Shown: positions 168 through 50,955 of the stretch, piece after piece
Numbering within the stretch: the first letter of the stretch is position 1
How the letters are laid out: each line of letters begins with the position of its first letter
NCBI RefSeq assembly: GCF_017316305.2
Contig: NZ_CP147250.1
Coordinates: 1,976,001-2,040,000, forward strand
Length of the DNA: 64,000 nt
Source of the DNA: Enterococcus sp. DIV1094
Lineage (GTDB): Bacteria > Bacillota > Bacilli > Lactobacillales > Enterococcaceae
Reading direction: 5' to 3'
Position numbers and translations under genes: made by a program
Notes under the pieces: model-generated
What the model was told of the DNA's origin: nothing
Databases searched by the model: none
What the model saw: the letters and a program-made list of their open reading frames with translations, nothing else

Positions 168-1109
168 GTGAATAGTTATATAAAATATGTATTAAAACGC
201 GTCTTCTTTATGGTCATCACACTTTGGTTGATTGCAACCATTACATTCTTTTTGATGCAATTATTACCTGGAACACCTTATACGAACCAAGAACGTTTAA
301 GTCCTGAAACGATTGAGATGTTGAATAAGCAAGTCGGTTTGGACAAACCAGTGATCGTTCAATATGGGATCTATCTTTCTAATTTGATCCAAGGAGATTT
401 TGGTATCTCATTCCAATTCAAAAACCAACCAGTTGCTAACTTATTAGCAGGACGAGTAGGACCTTCGTTACAACTTGGGCTACAAGCAATCATTTTCGGA
501 ACATTCTTTGGAACGATCCTAGGAACGATTTCGGCAATGAAACAAAATACTTGGGTCGATACGTCTTCAACATTAGTCGCGATCTTAGGTCGTTCTATCC
601 CTAACTTTGTGTTTGCGGTACTGTTGCAATATATTTTTGCTATCCAATTCCGCGTATTACCAATTGCCAAATGGGATGGGTTCATGTATACGATCTTACC
701 AACGATCGCATTAGCCATGTCGCCATTAGCCGATTCTGCCCGATTCATCCGAACAGAAATGGTGGAAGTGTTGCATAGTGATTATGTTGAACTCGCTCGA
801 GCAAAAGGTTTGAGTCGTTGGGAAATTGCCTTCAAGCATGGCTTACGAAATAGTTTGATCCCATTGATGACGTTGTTAGGACCACTAGCAGTAGCATTGA
901 TGACTGGTTCATTAGTCGTTGAAAATATTTTTGCGATTCCAGGGATCGGTGAGCAATTCGTTAAATCAATTACAACCAATGATTATCCAACGATCATGGC
1001 TGTGACGATCTTGTATTCATTTATGTTGATCTTAGTCATTTTAGTCGTGGATCTACTCTACGGACTAGTTGATCCGAGAATCCGAGTTTCTGAAGGGAGC
1101 CGAAGCTAG
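168..1109 (+). CDS. oppB: Oligopeptide ABC transporter permease OppB
   Basis: Membrane permease of a peptide importer of the OppBCDF type, pairing with OppC to form the translocation channel. The 313-residue length and six predicted hydrophobic segments fit the family; a cytoplasmic EAA-like loop (ELARAKGLSRWEIAFKHGLRN, around residues 207-227) docks with the ATPases. It starts with GTG at 168 behind AGGGGGA. It is the first gene of oppB-oppC-oppD-oppF-tldR, all tightly packed. No substrate-binding oppA is adjacent, so the binding protein must be encoded elsewhere or beyond the left edge. The peptide substrate cannot be told from sequence. Confidence 0.9.
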   Translation: MNSYIKYVLKRVFFMVITLWLIATITFFLMQLLPGTPYTNQERLSPETIEMLNKQVGLDKPVIVQYGIYLSNLIQGDFGISFQFKNQPVANLLAGRVGPSLQLGLQAIIFGTFFGTILGTISAMKQNTWVDTSSTLVAILGRSIPNFVFAVLLQYIFAIQFRVLPIAKWDGFMYTILPTIALAMSPLADSARFIRTEMVEVLHSDYVELARAKGLSRWEIAFKHGLRNSLIPLMTLLGPLAVALMTGSLVVENIFAIPGIGEQFVKSITTNDYPTIMAVTILYSFMLILVILVVDLLYGLVDPRIRVSEGSRS

Positions 1110-2153
1110 ATGGAATTGATACCTAAACGTTACGAAACAATTGCAGAAATACCTGCAGATGAATTTTTACCCTTACAAAAAAATACAGAAGAAGAACGTG
1201 AAAAAATCGAAGCTCCTTCACTGAATTTTATTCAAGATTCTTGGCGTCGATTGAAGAAAAACAAAGCGGCAGTTATTTCCATGGGGCTACTATTGACGAT
1301 CATCTTTATCTCGATCATCACGATTTTTGTTTCTCCTCACGATCCAACTGCTCAAAATGTGGATTATATCAACTTGCCACCCCGTATTCCTGGCATCGAT
1401 ATCGATGGCCTGAATGGGAAAGCAATGGTTGCAGGTGAGTTAGTCGATAAATATGCACAAGCAAATGTTCCAGCAGACGTGAACTACTTTTTAGGAACAG
1501 ATGGTTTAGGACGTGATGTGTTAAGTCGTTTGTTCATGGGAACACGGATCTCCTTGTTGATTGCATTTATCGCGGCCTTACTAGATGTAACGATCGGTGT
1601 GGCGTATGGTTTGATCTCTGGTTTATTAGGTGGTCGTGTAGATAATGCGATGCAACGTTTCTTAGAAGTCTTATCTGGTATTCCTAACTTAGTCGTAATG
1701 ATCTTGATGTTAGTCGTTTTTGAACCAGGGATCTTCTCGATCGTAGCAGCGATGGCGATCACGAACTGGATTCCAATGGCGCGGATCGTCAGGGCGCAAA
1801 CATTGAAATTAAAAGACCAAGAGTATGTATTAGCAGGGATGACGTTAGGTGAATCCAAATGGAAGATCGCCTTTAAACATATCTTGCCAAACATCTCGAG
1901 CGTGATCATCATCCAAATGATGTTCAGTATCCCATCAGCGATTTTCTTCGAAGCTTTCTTAAGCTTCATCGGTCTAGGCTTGACACCTCCTTCTGCTTCA
2001 TTGGGAACGATGTTGAGCGATGGCTATAAAACATTCTTATACTTGCCGTATCTATTATGGATTCCGGCAGCAACTTTATCGGTGATCATGATTGGTTTCA
2101 ACCTATTAGCAGATGGCTTACGTGATGCCTTTGATCCTAAAATGAAAGAGTGA
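1110..2153 (+). CDS. oppC: Oligopeptide ABC transporter permease OppC
   Basis: Second permease of the peptide importer. It has an N-terminal cytoplasmic region of about 50 residues, a first helix (around 55-75), a large external loop, then the core with the GTDGLGRDVLSR motif typical of OppC/DppC (around 129-140) and an EAA loop near residue 245. Its ATG follows the oppB stop directly, with GGGAG at about 1095. The 347-residue length is normal. It works as a heterodimer with OppB. Confidence 0.9.
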   Translation: MELIPKRYETIAEIPADEFLPLQKNTEEEREKIEAPSLNFIQDSWRRLKKNKAAVISMGLLLTIIFISIITIFVSPHDPTAQNVDYINLPPRIPGIDIDGLNGKAMVAGELVDKYAQANVPADVNYFLGTDGLGRDVLSRLFMGTRISLLIAFIAALLDVTIGVAYGLISGLLGGRVDNAMQRFLEVLSGIPNLVVMILMLVVFEPGIFSIVAAMAITNWIPMARIVRAQTLKLKDQEYVLAGMTLGESKWKIAFKHILPNISSVIIIQMMFSIPSAIFFEAFLSFIGLGLTPPSASLGTMLSDGYKTFLYLPYLLWIPAATLSVIMIGFNLLADGLRDAFDPKMKE

Positions 2154-2158
2154 GTACG

Positions 2159-3241
2159 ATGACGAAAATTCTTGAAGTAAAGAACTTACAAATCTCCTTT
2201 GATACCTATGCTGGGAAAGTCCAAGCAATCCGAGGCGTCGATTTTCATTTGAACAAAGGTGAAACATTGGCGATCGTTGGTGAATCCGGTAGTGGGAAAT
2301 CCGTAACGACTAGAAGTATCATGCGTTTACTTTCAAGTAACGCATCGATCGATTCAGGTGAGATTTTATTCAAAGGACAAAATATTGTTGATAAAACAGA
2401 AAAAGAAATGCAAAAGATTCGTGGAAAAGAAATCGCAATGATCTTCCAAGATCCGATGACATCATTAGATCCAACGATGACGATCGGCAAACAAGTAGCA
2501 GAATCTTTACGTAAGCACAATAAAGTATCGAAAAAAGAAGGACAAAAAGCCGCTTTAGACTTATTGAATCTTGTAGGGATACCGGATGCTGAAAAACGTA
2601 TCCACAGCTATCCCCATCAATTTTCAGGAGGACAGCGTCAACGGATCGTCATTGCGATTGCGTTGATTTGTTATCCAGAGATCTTGATTGCAGATGAACC
2701 AACGACTGCTCTAGATGTGACGATCCAAGCACAGATTTTAGAATTGTTGAAAAAAATCCAATCAAAGATCGATACATCGATCATTTTTATCACCCATGAC
2801 CTTGGTGTTGTGGCAAACGTCGCCGATCGAGTAGCCGTGATGTATGGTGGGAAAATCATTGAAGTCGGTACGTCTGAAGAGATTTTCTACAATCCACAGC
2901 ATCCATATACTTGGGGCTTACTTGGCTCCATGCCTACGTTGGAAAGTGGCAATGACCGCTTATATGCGATCCCAGGTTCGCCACCGGATCTTTTGAATCC
3001 GCCAAAAGGCGATGCGTTCTATCCACGGAATGAGTTTGCATTGAAGATCGATGCCGAACAAGCTCCACCGTTTTTCGAATTATCACCAACACATCAAGCG
3101 GCTACTTGGCTATTAGCCCCACAAGCACCTAAAGTGACGCCACCGGAAGAAATCCAACGGCGCTGGGCGATTTTTCAAGAAAAGCAAAAAGCACATGGCC
3201 AAGGGGGACTGAACAATGAACAAAAAACTGCTCGAGGTTAA
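2159..3241 (+). CDS. oppD: Oligopeptide ABC transporter ATPase OppD
   Basis: Cytoplasmic ATPase powering peptide uptake. Walker [12 protein letters not shown] signature FSGGQRQR, Walker [13 protein letters not shown] and the H-loop THDLGV are all present, with the C-terminal oligopeptide-transporter extension. I place the start at ATG 2159 because AAAGAG at 2145-2150 is well spaced for it; an in-frame GTG at 2150 overlapping the oppC stop is the alternative. It overlaps the start of oppF, indicating translational coupling. Confidence 0.9.
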
Positions 3242-4169
3242 AGGCTTAAAACAGTATTTCAATGTCGGAAAGAAAAATGAAGTTCATGCGGTGAATGACA
3301 TCAGTTTCCACATTTATGAAGGAGAAACATTTGGTTTAGTTGGTGAGTCTGGTAGTGGGAAATCAACAACTGGACGTACGATCATCCGTTTGAATGAACC
3401 GACGGGTGGCGAGATTTTATTTGACGGTCAAGATGTGACGAAGCTAAAAGGAAAAGAAGCGATGACCAAGTTTCGTCATGAAGTGCAAATGATTTTCCAA
3501 GACCCTTATGCTTCATTGAATCCAAGAATGAAAGTCCGTGACATCATTGCAGAAGGCATCGATGTCAACGGATTAGCTAAATCACCCGAAGAACGTGCAA
3601 CAAAAGTCAATGAATTACTAAAAACTGTTGGCTTGAATCCCAGTCACGGCACACGTTACCCACATGAATTTTCAGGTGGGCAGCGTCAACGGATCGGGAT
3701 TGCCCGAGCATTAGCGGTCAATCCTAAGTTTATCATTTGTGATGAACCGATCTCCGCTTTAGACGTATCGATCCAAGCACAAGTAGTCAACCTTTTACAA
3801 GACTTGCAAAAAGAACAAGGCTTGACTTACTTGTTTATTGCCCATGACTTATCTATGGTGAAACATATCAGTGACCGTATCGGTGTGATGCACAATGGCT
3901 TGTTACTAGAAATGGGAACAAGTGAAGAAATCTATAATCATGGGGTACATCCTTATACAGAAAGTTTACTCTCAGCGATTCCTTTGCCTGACCCAGACCA
4001 TGAACGTCAACGTCGTCGAATCAAGTATCAACCTGAACCAGACGATGGAAAAGCTCGTTCGTTGCGAGAGATCGCACCAGAGCATTTCGTTTATGCAACG
4101 GAGCAAGAAGTTGCTTATTATGCAAAAAAATTAAAACGGCAAAAGGAAGCCTTGCTAGTCGCAAACTAG
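3216..4169 (+). CDS. oppF: Oligopeptide ABC transporter ATPase OppF
   Basis: Second ATPase of the importer, forming a heterodimer with OppD. Motifs seen: Walker [25 protein letters not shown], Walker [15 protein letters not shown], and the switch region IAHDLSMV. The C-terminal oligopeptide/dipeptide extension ([12 protein letters not shown]) is present. The 317-residue length is usual. Its ATG lies within the oppD 3' end behind an AAGGGGGA site. It is followed 13 bp later by a TnpB-like gene, the arrangement that defines oppF-associated TldRs. Confidence 0.92.
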
Positions 4170-4182
4170 GAGGGAGAAGCCG

Positions 4183-5190
4183 ATGCTAAAAGCCTTTAAA
4201 TTTCGAATTTATCCCACTGCTTCACAAAAACAGTGGTTGATCCAAACATTTGGTTGTGTGCGTTTCACTTACAATCATTTATTAAAAGCCAGACAAGCGT
4301 ATTATTTGGAAACAAAAGAAATCGATTATACGTTGACACCTGCTTCTTTAAAAAAACAATATCCTTTTTTAAAGGAAGTCGATAGTTTAGCCTTAGCGAA
4401 TGCCCAATTAAACTTGGATCGTGCATTTCGTAATTATTTTAAAGGACGCGCAAGCTTCCCCAAACTGAAAAATAAAAAAAGTATTTGGCAGTCGTATACG
4501 ACGAACAACCAAAAGGGAACGATCTATTTAGAAGAAACATACATCAAACTGCCAAAGTTAAAAGAGAAGATCCGCATCCATGCCCATCGTCCGATCGAAG
4601 GAACGATTCGTTCAGCGACGATCTCCTCTCGTTACAATGAGCTGTTTTATGTGTCATTGCTTTGTGAAGTTCCCCAAAAAACAATGGAAGCATCAAATAA
4701 ATGGATCGGGATCGCCTATGATCCAGATCGTCTAGTGGAGATGTCCACACCGATCGATATCTCGGTCCCTAAATTCAAACACGTCGATCGGCAGCTTGTT
4801 CGAGCAAAAAGAAAGCTTGTGATCAAAGGTCGGGCAGCGCAACACAGACGGACACACGTTGAAAGAGTTAAAAATTACCAAAAACAAAAACGAAAAATCA
4901 AAGACCTGTATTTAAAACAAAAATTTCAACGAGAAGACTATTTTGAACAAATTTCAGGAACGGTCATCCGTAACTATGATTATTTGTTTGTCGAATCGAT
5001 TTCAGCAGACTGTTCAGAAGGTGAGTTTTCAATCCAAGATTGGCATAAGCTATTAGCAAAACTCCAGTACAAATCGCAATGGTACAGCAAAAAGCTAGTA
5101 TTGATCGATATGCAGGAACAAACGAATCCTTCCACAGGAAAAAAGAGTCTGGAATTAGTTGAAATAGGAAAACAAGTTCTGTTTGAATAA
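4183..5190 (+). CDS. tldR: TnpB-like nuclease-dead protein, oppF-associated TldR (putative RNA-guided transcription repressor)
   Basis: A 335-residue TnpB/OrfB homologue: N-terminal REC/wedge part begins MLKAFKFRIYPT and continues with the FGCVRFTYNHLL motif. The nuclease site is lost. The RuvC-I motif reads IGIAYD (175-180) with Ala178 where TnpB has Asp; RuvC-II Glu271 (LFVESIS) remains; after WYSKKLVLIDMQ the two CxxC pairs and the RuvC-III Asp are missing, replaced by a short non-homologous tail. The frame is intact with a strong AGGAGGGAG site, and no tnpA or left end is present. Gene position, 13 bp after oppF, matches the described Enterococcus TldR clade, which represses promoters using a short guide RNA. 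The function here is inferred from that family. Confidence 0.87.
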   Translation: MLKAFKFRIYPTASQKQWLIQTFGCVRFTYNHLLKARQAYYLETKEIDYTLTPASLKKQYPFLKEVDSLALANAQLNLDRAFRNYFKGRASFPKLKNKKSIWQSYTTNNQKGTIYLEETYIKLPKLKEKIRIHAHRPIEGTIRSATISSRYNELFYVSLLCEVPQKTMEASNKWIGIAYDPDRLVEMSTPIDISVPKFKHVDRQLVRAKRKLVIKGRAAQHRRTHVERVKNYQKQKRKIKDLYLKQKFQREDYFEQISGTVIRNYDYLFVESISADCSEGEFSIQDWHKLLAKLQYKSQWYSKKLVLIDMQEQTNPSTGKKSLELVEIGKQVLFE

Positions 5191-5293
5191 AAAAACTGGT
5201 AGGGGCGCCAGGGTTCGCCTTGTTTATAAAAAACAACTATTGTTTTTGTTTCTAGGAATTTCTTTAAGAAAAGCTCACTAATTATGACAAACC
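5191..5293 (+). ncRNA. Putative TldR guide RNA (scaffold plus guide)
   Basis: The non-coding stretch after tldR resembles a transposon right end and is followed at once by a terminator. Two foldable parts are visible: GGCG/CGCC arms around a GTTCGCC loop near 5204-5219, and AAAACAA/TTGTTTT arms near 5230-5247. The scaffold appears to end in GCTCAC (5273-5278), comparable to the TTCAC end of the tnpB remnant at 50955. The next 15 nt, TAATTATGACAAACC (5279-5293), are the predicted guide. The true 5' end probably lies inside tldR. Boundaries are inferred. Confidence 0.6.
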
Positions 5294-5294
5294 A

Positions 5295-5335
5295 AAAAAG
5301 AGGAGAAGAGCATTTACTGCCCTTCACCTCTTTTT
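5295..5335 (+). terminator. Bidirectional intrinsic terminator after the opp-tldR operon and guide RNA
   Basis: AAAAAGAGG pairs with CCTCTTTTT, with inner GAAG/CTTC and GCA/TGC pairs and a five-base loop. It starts directly after the predicted guide and overlaps the stop of the convergent NUDIX gene. Confidence 0.8.
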
Positions 5336-6155
5336 ATTCTGTATGCCCAGGTTTTAATTGATAGATTTTTGAAGGACGTCCGATCCCAACTGGACGTTCG
5401 CCGATTTCATCAAAGTACTGTAACATTGCTTTTTTAAAATTGGAATGATCGATCATTTTAAAATCGATCCCTAAAAATTTAGCAAATACTTTACGTGCTT
5501 CTGTGATCGTGAAGTCTTTTCCTAGAACTTGAAGCACCTGTGGCTCATGTTCCATTTTATTGACGACACGGTTGAAGGCTTTGACAATGATCTCGCTGTG
5601 GTCAAAGGCTAACGTGTCTTTGCCGGAAGATTCACTTGTCGTTAAATCAAGCGTGATTGCCACCTCACCACTCGATAAATGAAGCTTGTTTGCATTGCGT
5701 TCCAGAGAAAACCATTGGACTTCTTTGGCATCGTCTCCAGCAATCAAAGGTTCTTCACCGATAAAGGCGAGATAGCTGACTGTGACGACCCAGCCACGAG
5801 GGTCACGGTTTGGTGTACTGAAGGTATGCAGTTGTTCAATATTTTCTTCTGAGATGACAACGCCAGTTTCTTCCTTGGTTTCTCTTAAGACGCTGGCACC
5901 TGTCGATTCATTCTTTTGGACGAATCCTCCAGGAAGTGCCCAGGAATTTCGATAAGGATGGCTTTTACGCTGGATAAGCAAAACTTTTAATTGATCTTCT
6001 TCTTTGTTATAGCAGAGTAAAACGATATCGACTGTCAAGGAAGGTTTCTCATATTCAGGCCGCTCTTGGTCTTGGTACCAAGCTAAGAAATCGGCTTCCG
6101 GTGCTTCTTGTTCATAATAGGTTTTTTCTTCTTCTTTTGAATGAAAGTGTTCCAC
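5334..6155 (-). CDS. NUDIX domain protein with C-terminal winged helix, NrtR-like regulator
   Basis: A perfect NUDIX box is seen: G77-x5-E83-x7-R91-E92-x2-E95-E96-x-G98. The family hydrolyses or binds nucleoside diphosphates linked to another group. Beyond residue 190 a winged-helix-like domain follows (LGKDFTITEARKVFAKFL), the architecture of NrtR, which binds ADP-ribose and represses NAD genes. The 273-residue length is slightly longer than NrtR because of an acidic N-terminal extension. GTG start at 6155 behind GGGAGGTG. With an intact NUDIX box it could still be a hydrolase. No NrtR target is evident nearby, so the regulatory role is inferred. Confidence 0.75.
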   Translation of the reverse strand: MEHFHSKEEEKTYYEQEAPEADFLAWYQDQERPEYEKPSLTVDIVLLCYNKEEDQLKVLLIQRKSHPYRNSWALPGGFVQKNESTGASVLRETKEETGVVISEENIEQLHTFSTPNRDPRGWVVTVSYLAFIGEEPLIAGDDAKEVQWFSLERNANKLHLSSGEVAITLDLTTSESSGKDTLAFDHSEIIVKAFNRVVNKMEHEPQVLQVLGKDFTITEARKVFAKFLGIDFKMIDHSNFKKAMLQYFDEIGERPVGIGRPSKIYQLKPGHTE

Positions 6156-6246
6156 GTTTTCACCTCCCGTTAGATTAAGGCGCTTTTTACATTATTGTAG
6201 CAGAATCTCAAGTAAAACCAAAGATTTCTAGACAAATAAATCAAAC

Positions 6247-6525
6247 TCATAGTTGAAAGAGAAACGGTAAGAGTAGATTAAATAGGAAGAAAAGCAAATA
6301 AAAAGGGAGAAGCTTTTGTTTTTCTTCTCGAATGGCGAAAAATCCACAGACAACGATGTACACTGCTAGGACAACTCGAAGGATCATTGAGAGTAAAAGA
6401 AACGTGTTCAGCTGTCCATGAAGATTGAAATAACCGTATAAACGTAAATAATAGAAACTAAATAGTAGATGGACGAGCGAAAGTAAAGTAATACTGATAA
6501 TAAATAATTTGTGCTTTTTTGTCAT
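6247..6525 (-). CDS. Small three-helix membrane protein of unknown function
   Basis: About 92 residues with three hydrophobic segments (around residues 5-28, 37-62 and 68-90) and a short basic loop between the second and third. I take the internal ATG at 6525 rather than the TTG nine bases upstream. The ribosome binding site is weak. I do not recognise a family. Lies alone between the NUDIX gene and metG. Confidence 0.55.
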   Translation of the reverse strand: MTKKHKLFIISITLLSLVHLLFSFYYLRLYGYFNLHGQLNTFLLLSMILRVVLAVYIVVCGFFAIREEKQKLLPFYLLFFLFNLLLPFLFQL

Positions 6526-50114: not shown

Positions 50115-50307
50115 GAACAAAAAATACTGGTATCGGTAATCGTCGAACAGCTAACTGATATAAAACGGCAACCCTGACAATCAAAATAAGACACAATTTA
50201 CTTTTTGTATCATTTTTTGTCCTTTCAGCGATAGGCGCCATAGCAATTAGTTCGCTTATCTTTTTTACTGTGATATGATTGTGATAGATAAAAAGGAGCT
50301 GATAATT

Positions 50308-50723: not shown

Positions 50724-50726
50724 ACG

Positions 50727-50885
50727 CATCACGACCGAGATATCAATGCGAGTATCAATATTCTGAACGAAGGACTGCGAATAAAAGACTTGGTTTAGAT
50801 ACAAATAAGAACCGTAGGAACTACGGAGATCGCTTGGTCAATAAGAGAAACCGCTGTGAGTAAAGAAATACGCTTACAAGTATGA
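50727..50885 (+). pseudogene. 3' remnant of an IS200/IS605-type tnpB
   Basis: The frame reads HHDRDINASINILNEGL, the RuvC-III motif with its catalytic Asp, then after TAG at 50796 continues TVGTTEIAW and KEIRLQV to TGA 50883. These are the C-terminal features of TnpB/IS1341 proteins. Everything 5' of it is lost. It is only about 52 codons, so it is too short and broken for ordinary gene finding. It is followed by a transposon right end. Confidence 0.75.
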
Positions 50886-50955
50886 TCTCTTCCCAAGAAA
50901 CTCCCACTTCAAGCGTTAAGAACCGTTAGGGTTAGCTAAGTGGCGAGTAGTTCAC
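50860..50955 (+). mobile_element. IS200/IS605-type right end with omega-RNA scaffold remnant
   Basis: After the tnpB remnant comes a structured stretch with CTTCAAGCGTTAAG and a CCCACTT...AAGTGGCG pairing, ending AGTAGTTCAC at 50955, typical of the TnpB right end and omega-RNA scaffold. The next bases (GTGTGTAACAAAAG, from 50956) would be the guide. The TTCAC end supplies the TGA stop of the convergent PucR-type gene. No left end or tnpA seen. Confidence 0.65.

What the first reader, a model, noticed from the sequence alone, without database searches (positions are those of the whole stretch)
4183..5190. TnpB exapted as an oppF-linked RNA-guided regulator (TldR)
The protein keeps the whole N-terminal and RuvC-I/II fold of TnpB in an intact, well-initiated frame, yet has Ala178 for the RuvC-I Asp and lacks the zinc finger and the RuvC-III end. 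Loss of catalysis with a conserved frame, no tnpA, and fixed position 13 bp after oppF argue for selection as a DNA-binding protein, matching the oppF-associated TldR clade known from enterococci. It would repress a target by CRISPRi-like binding, likely an opp promoter.
Basis: partly seen in the sequence, partly recalled or inferred. Interest (0 to 1): 0.95.

Follow-up and report, generated by a model that had tools for sequence, protein, structure and literature searches.

The report
Dead transposon nuclease guarding peptide operon
A gene inherited from a jumping element in this gut-type bacterium has lost its DNA-cutting residues but is followed by a conserved guide RNA gene, and the pair is predicted to bind the promoter of the peptide-uptake operon it belongs to and would likely turn that operon down; it is a new example of a recently described kind of regulator.

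The parts
168..1109 (+). oppB, permease of the oligopeptide ABC transporter
   Evidence: ORF; order oppA-B-C-D-F-tldR in E. mundtii L001/L003
1110..2153 (+). oppC, permease
   Evidence: ORF
2150..3241 (+). oppD, ATPase
   Evidence: ORF
3216..4169 (+). oppF, ATPase (ABC_tran 7.5e-36, oligo_HPY 1.5e-6)
4168..4173 (+). AGGAGG, likely ribosome-binding site of tldR, overlapping the oppF stop codon
   Evidence: read from sequence
4183..5190 (+). tldR: nuclease-dead TnpB, 335 aa; A178 for RuvC-I Asp, E271 kept, no zinc finger, no RuvC-III; QSYTTNNQ 103-110 nearly invariant
5194..5278 (+). guide-RNA scaffold, ends GCTCAC; 78.5 bits with a covariance model of the family (built with this sequence included)
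   Evidence: weak Rfam Ref70 match 5190-5290
5279..5293 (+). guide TAATTATGACAAACC; first seven bases TAATTAT 5279-5285
   Evidence: begins where the right end ...TTCAC ends in enterococcal TnpB copies
5295..5335 (+). terminator hairpin behind the guide, -18.3 kcal/mol, z -5.06, followed by T; overlaps the end of the convergent Nudix/NrtR-like gene
   Evidence: the consensus scan lists it on the - strand only

Best explanation
The gene is a TnpB that has lost its catalytic Asp, zinc finger and RuvC-III end, is followed by its own guide RNA gene, and is predicted to bind TTTAA-flanked DNA in the promoter of the opp operon and likely represses it. How it would work: tldR and the guide RNA likely ride on the oppBCDF transcript (13 nt gap behind oppF, hairpin terminator only behind the guide; co-transcription itself is inferred). 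The TldR protein would bind the scaffold 5194-5278 (inferred from kinship of protein and RNA to TnpB and its right-end RNA). The guide UAAUUAUGA... would open the DNA next to a TTTAA TAM; in E. mundtii and the other tldR-bearing faecium-group genomes the site is TTTAA|TAATTAT in the spacer between -35 TTGNNN and -10 TAAACT/TAAAAT of oppA (seen in relatives, outside this window). A bound, uncut R-loop there would shut out RNA polymerase (inferred). As tldR sits in the operon it targets, the circuit would be negative autoregulation, next to a CodY-like box in the oppA leader.
Against: The match upstream of oppA is only 6-9 nt (7 in the faecium group) and guide position 8 mismatches in the short type; the conserved guide end (..AACC) has no match found. 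The scaffold alone does not fold better than shuffles (z 0.42); two of five covariation measures are weak (14 and 166 of 500 shuffles as high). TTTAATAATTAT occurs 2-6 times per tldR-bearing faecium-group genome: 51 in 13 genomes, 13 of them the oppA promoter; the backward control gives 34. Only three independent presence/absence changes; the sign test cannot fall below 0.25, and gain or loss cannot be told. No expression, binding or repression data. The window's own oppA promoter is not in hand.
Confidence: 0.85

Rival explanations
1. The guide RNA (Ref70-type sRNA) acts mainly as an antisense RNA on opp mRNA, with TldR as its partner protein.
For: In the 22 long-type operons the site is on the reverse strand in the oppA leader, behind -10, so the guide is also complementary to the mRNA there.
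Against: In the 43 short-type operons the site is on the + strand, and in the faecium group it lies between -35 and -10, so it cannot pair with the mRNA.
Confidence: 0.07
2. The match between guide and opp promoter is a fossil: the ancestral element once sat in an opp promoter, and the guide still carries that flank, without present function.
For: Guides of TnpB elements derive from the insertion flank (recalled); the first seven guide bases are the same in all 76 guides read.
Against: dN/dS far below 1; site absent where tldR is absent (16 of 16 operons); sites found on the other strand and at other operons while still TTTAA-flanked.
Confidence: 0.06
3. Ordinary decaying TnpB pseudogene parked behind oppF.
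For: Catalytic residues and C-terminus lost; 2 of 78 relatives are truncated.
Against: 76 of 78 open over the usual length, conserved binding half, guide RNA at 77 of 80 loci.
Confidence: 0.02

Closest known systems
oppF-associated TldR of enterococci (Wiegand et al. 2024, Nature 631:439; not held here, recalled)
   Same: Dead TnpB next to oppF in Enterococcus, guide RNA, CRISPRi-like repression proposed (recalled)
   Different: This window is a faecium-group ortholog (E. mundtii-like); the Ref70 identity, the tldR-less operons lacking the site and the orphan copies matching another peptide-binding gene come from the present calls; whether that paper has them could not be checked
fliC-associated TldR of Enterobacter prophages (PMC13418256; introduction and passages read)
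   Same: Nuclease-dead TnpB plus guide RNA repressing a promoter; guides of 6 nt suffice there
   Different: Prophage-borne and paired with a flagellin; here behind oppF and matching its own operon
IS605-type TnpB (ISDra2; enterococcal copies L111-L114, L185-L204)
   Same: Fold (ISDra2); scaffold ending in TTCAC and TTTAA at the left end (enterococcal copies)
   Different: D/E/D catalysis and zinc-finger Cys kept in ISDra2 and L111-L114; part of a transposon
Rfam RF02841 Ref70, Enterococcus sRNA 70
   Same: Long-type tldR guide RNAs L226, L225, L232 match it over its whole length above threshold (135.6, 117.6, 115.6 bits), guide included
   Different: The window's RNA scores 32.3 bits, far under the 115 cut-off

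Membership tests
TldR (TnpB-like nuclease-dead repressor) | TnpB homology and fold | tested here: met
TldR (TnpB-like nuclease-dead repressor) | Nuclease active site lost in an otherwise maintained gene | tested here: met
   A178, no RuvC-III; dN/dS 0.057-0.065 (62)
TldR (TnpB-like nuclease-dead repressor) | Not in a transposon; tied to a non-transposon gene (oppF) | tested here: met
   13 nt after oppF, no space for tnpA; 69 of 78 relatives' loci follow an oppF (59, 105)
TldR (TnpB-like nuclease-dead repressor) | Adjacent guide RNA with TnpB-type scaffold | tested here: met
   the model also weakly finds the right end of TnpB copies (19.5-23.8 bits, E 0.0086-0.092)
TldR (TnpB-like nuclease-dead repressor) | Guide matches a host promoter next to the TAM, in relatives | tested here: met
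   65 of 65 linked operons and E. mundtii L001, L003 (30); 7 nt in the faecium group
TldR (TnpB-like nuclease-dead repressor) | The same in the window's own genome | not testable with these tools
   the window begins behind oppA and no whole genome is held
TldR (TnpB-like nuclease-dead repressor) | Binds RNA and DNA and represses without cutting | not testable with these tools
   needs RIP-seq, ChIP-seq, reporter
Active TnpB nuclease | RuvC D/E/D triad | tested here: not met
   A / E / absent
Active TnpB nuclease | C-terminal zinc finger | tested here: not met
   Cys only at 25, 161, 277
Rfam Ref70 | Score at or above gathering threshold | tested here: not met
   Window 32.3 of 115 bits, E 0.014; 3 of 5 relatives given reach it (L225, L226, L232; not L221, L057)

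The most novel reading that the evidence does not exclude
The enterococcal sRNA Ref70 is not a free sRNA but the guide of a TldR that forms an autogenous feedback loop on peptide uptake: the operon ends in the repressor and guide that shut it down, guide and promoter have co-evolved across the family, and stranded copies have been re-aimed in trans at a second peptide transporter, making peptide uptake a standing, reprogrammable target of RNA-guided control.
Probability: 0.6. Interest if true: 0.66.

Novelty: new member of a known kind. Interest (0 to 1): 0.55.

Why it matters
It adds an ortholog with a readable anatomy (protein, guide RNA, terminator, TAM, likely target) to a new class of natural CRISPRi-like regulators. 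It offers a prediction with built-in controls (operons with and without tldR), links an orphan Rfam sRNA family to a likely function, and would place RNA-guided control on oligopeptide uptake, which feeds nutrition and peptide signalling. NCBI's model names the protein an endonuclease, which it most likely is not.

Tried and rejected
Longer guide match: TAATTATGANNAACC occurs at 13 places in the 15 faecium-group genomes, 12 of them the guide RNA itself and one elsewhere in G003. TTTAATAATTATKA gave one site in each of G001, G003 and G010 with the guide's G, and one with T in G011. Site in the oppA-oppB gap of L003: best match 3 nt. Site in the window: one match with one mismatch, at 50302, against 1.55 expected. 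Separate promoter for the guide RNA: 5 promoter-like sites in 4000-6400 against 4.7 expected, so not claimed. tldR in phages or plasmids: in the phage records 2 of 236 are 60-80% identical and 234 under 60%; all 3415 plasmid records are under 60%. Cas12f reading: PADLOC hits to 4.7e-16 fit shared ancestry; no CRISPR array was looked for. The first RNA hairpin (CTGG/CCAG) was not counted for covariation because the long-type rows are shifted there.

Rows dropped: one search left out L001-L003 (G001 and G003, named E. mundtii, and a repeat of G002; their sites are) and TnpB loci L111-L114; one search kept 81 of 97 loci (9 orphans, 4 with the second opp, 3 lone oppA left out); one search left out promoters within 450 nt of an oppA start from its control. 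The search for sites asked for TTTAA. Guide reading required TAATTAT; searches did not. In one search the scaffold end was found at 76 of 80 loci, all followed by TAATTAT; L105 was missed there but read; L093, L102, L104 have none. Structure and conservation used 47 rows that I chose from the 120 listed homologues. The dN/dS pairs were also chosen; some further rows there gave errors or no dS.

Full report
WHAT IS THERE. Bases 168-5190 hold oppB, oppC, oppD, oppF and a 335-codon ORF whose likely ribosome-binding site lies on the oppF stop, 13 nt behind oppF. In two named E. mundtii genomes the same order follows oppA, and the ORF is 94-95% identical. The window starts inside the oppA-oppB gap, so oppA and its promoter are not in it.

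SELECTION. dN/dS between the window and two E. mundtii genomes plus the near-identical unnamed G010 is 0.057-0.065, against 0.006-0.012 for oppF. Of 78 loci 2 are truncated (L093, L110). Over 46 homologues that I chose from 120 listed, the first 165 residues are 62-74% identical to the window, residues 166-335 29-44%, and QSYTTNNQ (103-110) is invariant but for one residue in one row of 47. That stretch aligns with a TAM-contacting part of ISDra2 TnpB (recalled).

THE GUIDE RNA. Right behind tldR lies a conserved RNA gene: scaffold 5194-5278, guide 5279-5293, terminator hairpin 5295-5335 (z -5.06). In 51 aligned copies a hairpin and a long-range pairing between a 5' loop and the last scaffold bases keep 95.7% of cells paired, with 81 two-sided changes against 20.7 in shuffles; of the five measures three exceed all 500 shuffles, two do not (14 and 166 of 500 as high). 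A model of the scaffold without guide finds 79 places in 73 of 105 family genomes: 77 are in tldR loci (77 of 80 loci hold one), one is at a contig end whose neighbour is cut off (G105, L259), and one, weak (G083, E 3e-4, L260), looks like a lone TnpB-type RNA. None of the 16 genomes whose opp operon lacks tldR has a match. The same model weakly recognises the right end of TnpB copies (19.5-23.8 bits), which fits common descent. The window RNA alone does not fold better than shuffles (z 0.42).

REF70. Rfam RF02841, 'Enterococcus sRNA 70', matches this gene over its whole length: 135.6, 117.6 and 115.6 bits in L226, L225, L232 (cut-off 115) and 32.3 bits, E 0.014, in the window. Two of the five loci given to one search did not reach the cut-off. 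A paper search for Ref70 with Enterococcus listed one paper, on linezolid pharmacokinetics, not opened; a term search of one paper on E. faecalis ncRNAs, PMC13286765, found no Ref7x, oppA, oppF or TnpB. Within these searches the link is not in print; the 2024 TldR paper could not be read.

TAM AND TARGET. In the TnpB copies the sequence after TTCAC differs from copy to copy, so the guide starts there. Before the left end TTTAA was read in 18 of 20 copies, 19 of 20 when asked for. So a target should read TTTAA-TAATTAT. Of 15 faecium-group genomes searched, 13 bear tldR, and in all 13 one such 12-mer is in the oppA promoter (with the oppA places); these 13 hold 51 such 12-mers in all, and 34 of the pattern read backwards. 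In E. mundtii it reads TTGCAA-ATTTAATAATTATTCAT-TAAACT: the site lies between -35 and -10.

ASSOCIATION. In 65 of 65 tldR-linked operons TTTAA plus at least 6 contiguous guide bases (6 in 12, 7 in 32, 8 in 20, 9 in 1) lies within 200 nt upstream of an oppA; in 0 of 16 orthologous operons without tldR, and 0 of 19 counting three lone oppA (best 4 nt). Other ORFs of the same loci: 2 of 521; shuffled guides: 132 of 12780. On the opp tree presence and site each change three times, always together; three pairs cannot reach significance, and gain or loss cannot be told. G006, a faecium-group genome with no tldR behind oppF, has TTGCTTTTTTTAGAAATATTTATTAAACT: -35 and -10 like its kin, but not the site. 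Some tldR-less genomes (for example G025) bear TnpB copies elsewhere.

OTHER ARRANGEMENTS. In the 22 long-type operons the site is on the reverse strand in the oppA leader, and the guide's eighth base fits it in 21. Four tldR genes follow a different opp operon (oppD/oppF 52-57%); a TTTAATAATTA site lies on the reverse strand beside the -35 TTGACG. Nine loci have no opp beside them; in two, G039 and G041, whose genomes gave no OppA match at E<=1e-100, the guide reads TAATTATAAC and the only TTTAATAATTATRA site of each genome lies about 215 nt before an SBP_bac_5 peptide-binding gene, 85% alike between the two and 29% to OppA.

MECHANISM. Shown: dead site, predicted fold, conserved guide RNA gene, TTTAA and guide start in TnpB copies, site and co-occurrence in relatives. 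Inferred: co-transcription, RNA binding, R-loop, repression, feedback. The faecium-group site is between -35 and -10, so an antisense mechanism is hard there; in the long type it is not excluded. Unexplained: the mismatch at guide position 8 in the short type, and the conserved end AACC.

NOVELTY. oppF-linked TldRs in enterococci are known (recalled from Wiegand 2024; the kind is summarised in the introduction of PMC13418256, of which I read that section and passages, including that 6-nt guides suffice for the flagellin TldR). 

Noticed in passing
window 50724-50955: Remnant of an IS605-type element: a TnpB tail with THHDRDINAS followed by a whole right-end RNA (model 19.4 bits, E 0.098) ending GTAGTTCAC; no TnpB ORF of 100 aa or more precedes it.
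   Followed up: partly
L115, L116, L118 near 1501: Two named E. mundtii genomes and the near-identical G010 each carry one TTTAATAATTATGA site (9-nt guide match) upstream of a TetR-like gene followed by an ABC-exporter-like gene; possible second target or chance.
   Followed up: partly
L003 3767-3781: CodY-like box ATTATTCTGAAAATT (2 mismatches to a recalled consensus) in the oppA leader, downstream of the TldR site.
   Followed up: no
L258 (OR848705.1, 'Listeria phage LM 4-14-1'): An unannotated wastewater contig filed as a phage holds oppC-oppD-oppF-tldR-guide RNA-nudix like the window (oppF 92%, same 15-nt guide), so it is most likely enterococcal DNA.
   Followed up: yes
L102, L104: Second tldR copies in genomes that have another tldR-guide locus: frames open (305 and 302 aa) but no guide RNA beside them; they may borrow the other guide.
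   Followed up: no
L260 about 2700-2800: A TnpB-type guide RNA standing alone, with no TnpB-like ORF seen in the 5 kb around it.
   Followed up: partly
window 5286-5293 and relatives: Guide positions 8-15 (GANNAACC) are conserved in much of the short type although no genomic match was found in the faecium group.
   Followed up: partly
window 5334-6155: Convergent gene with NUDIX plus NrtR winged-helix domains shares its end with the guide RNA terminator; the neighbourhood is kept in many relatives.
   Followed up: no
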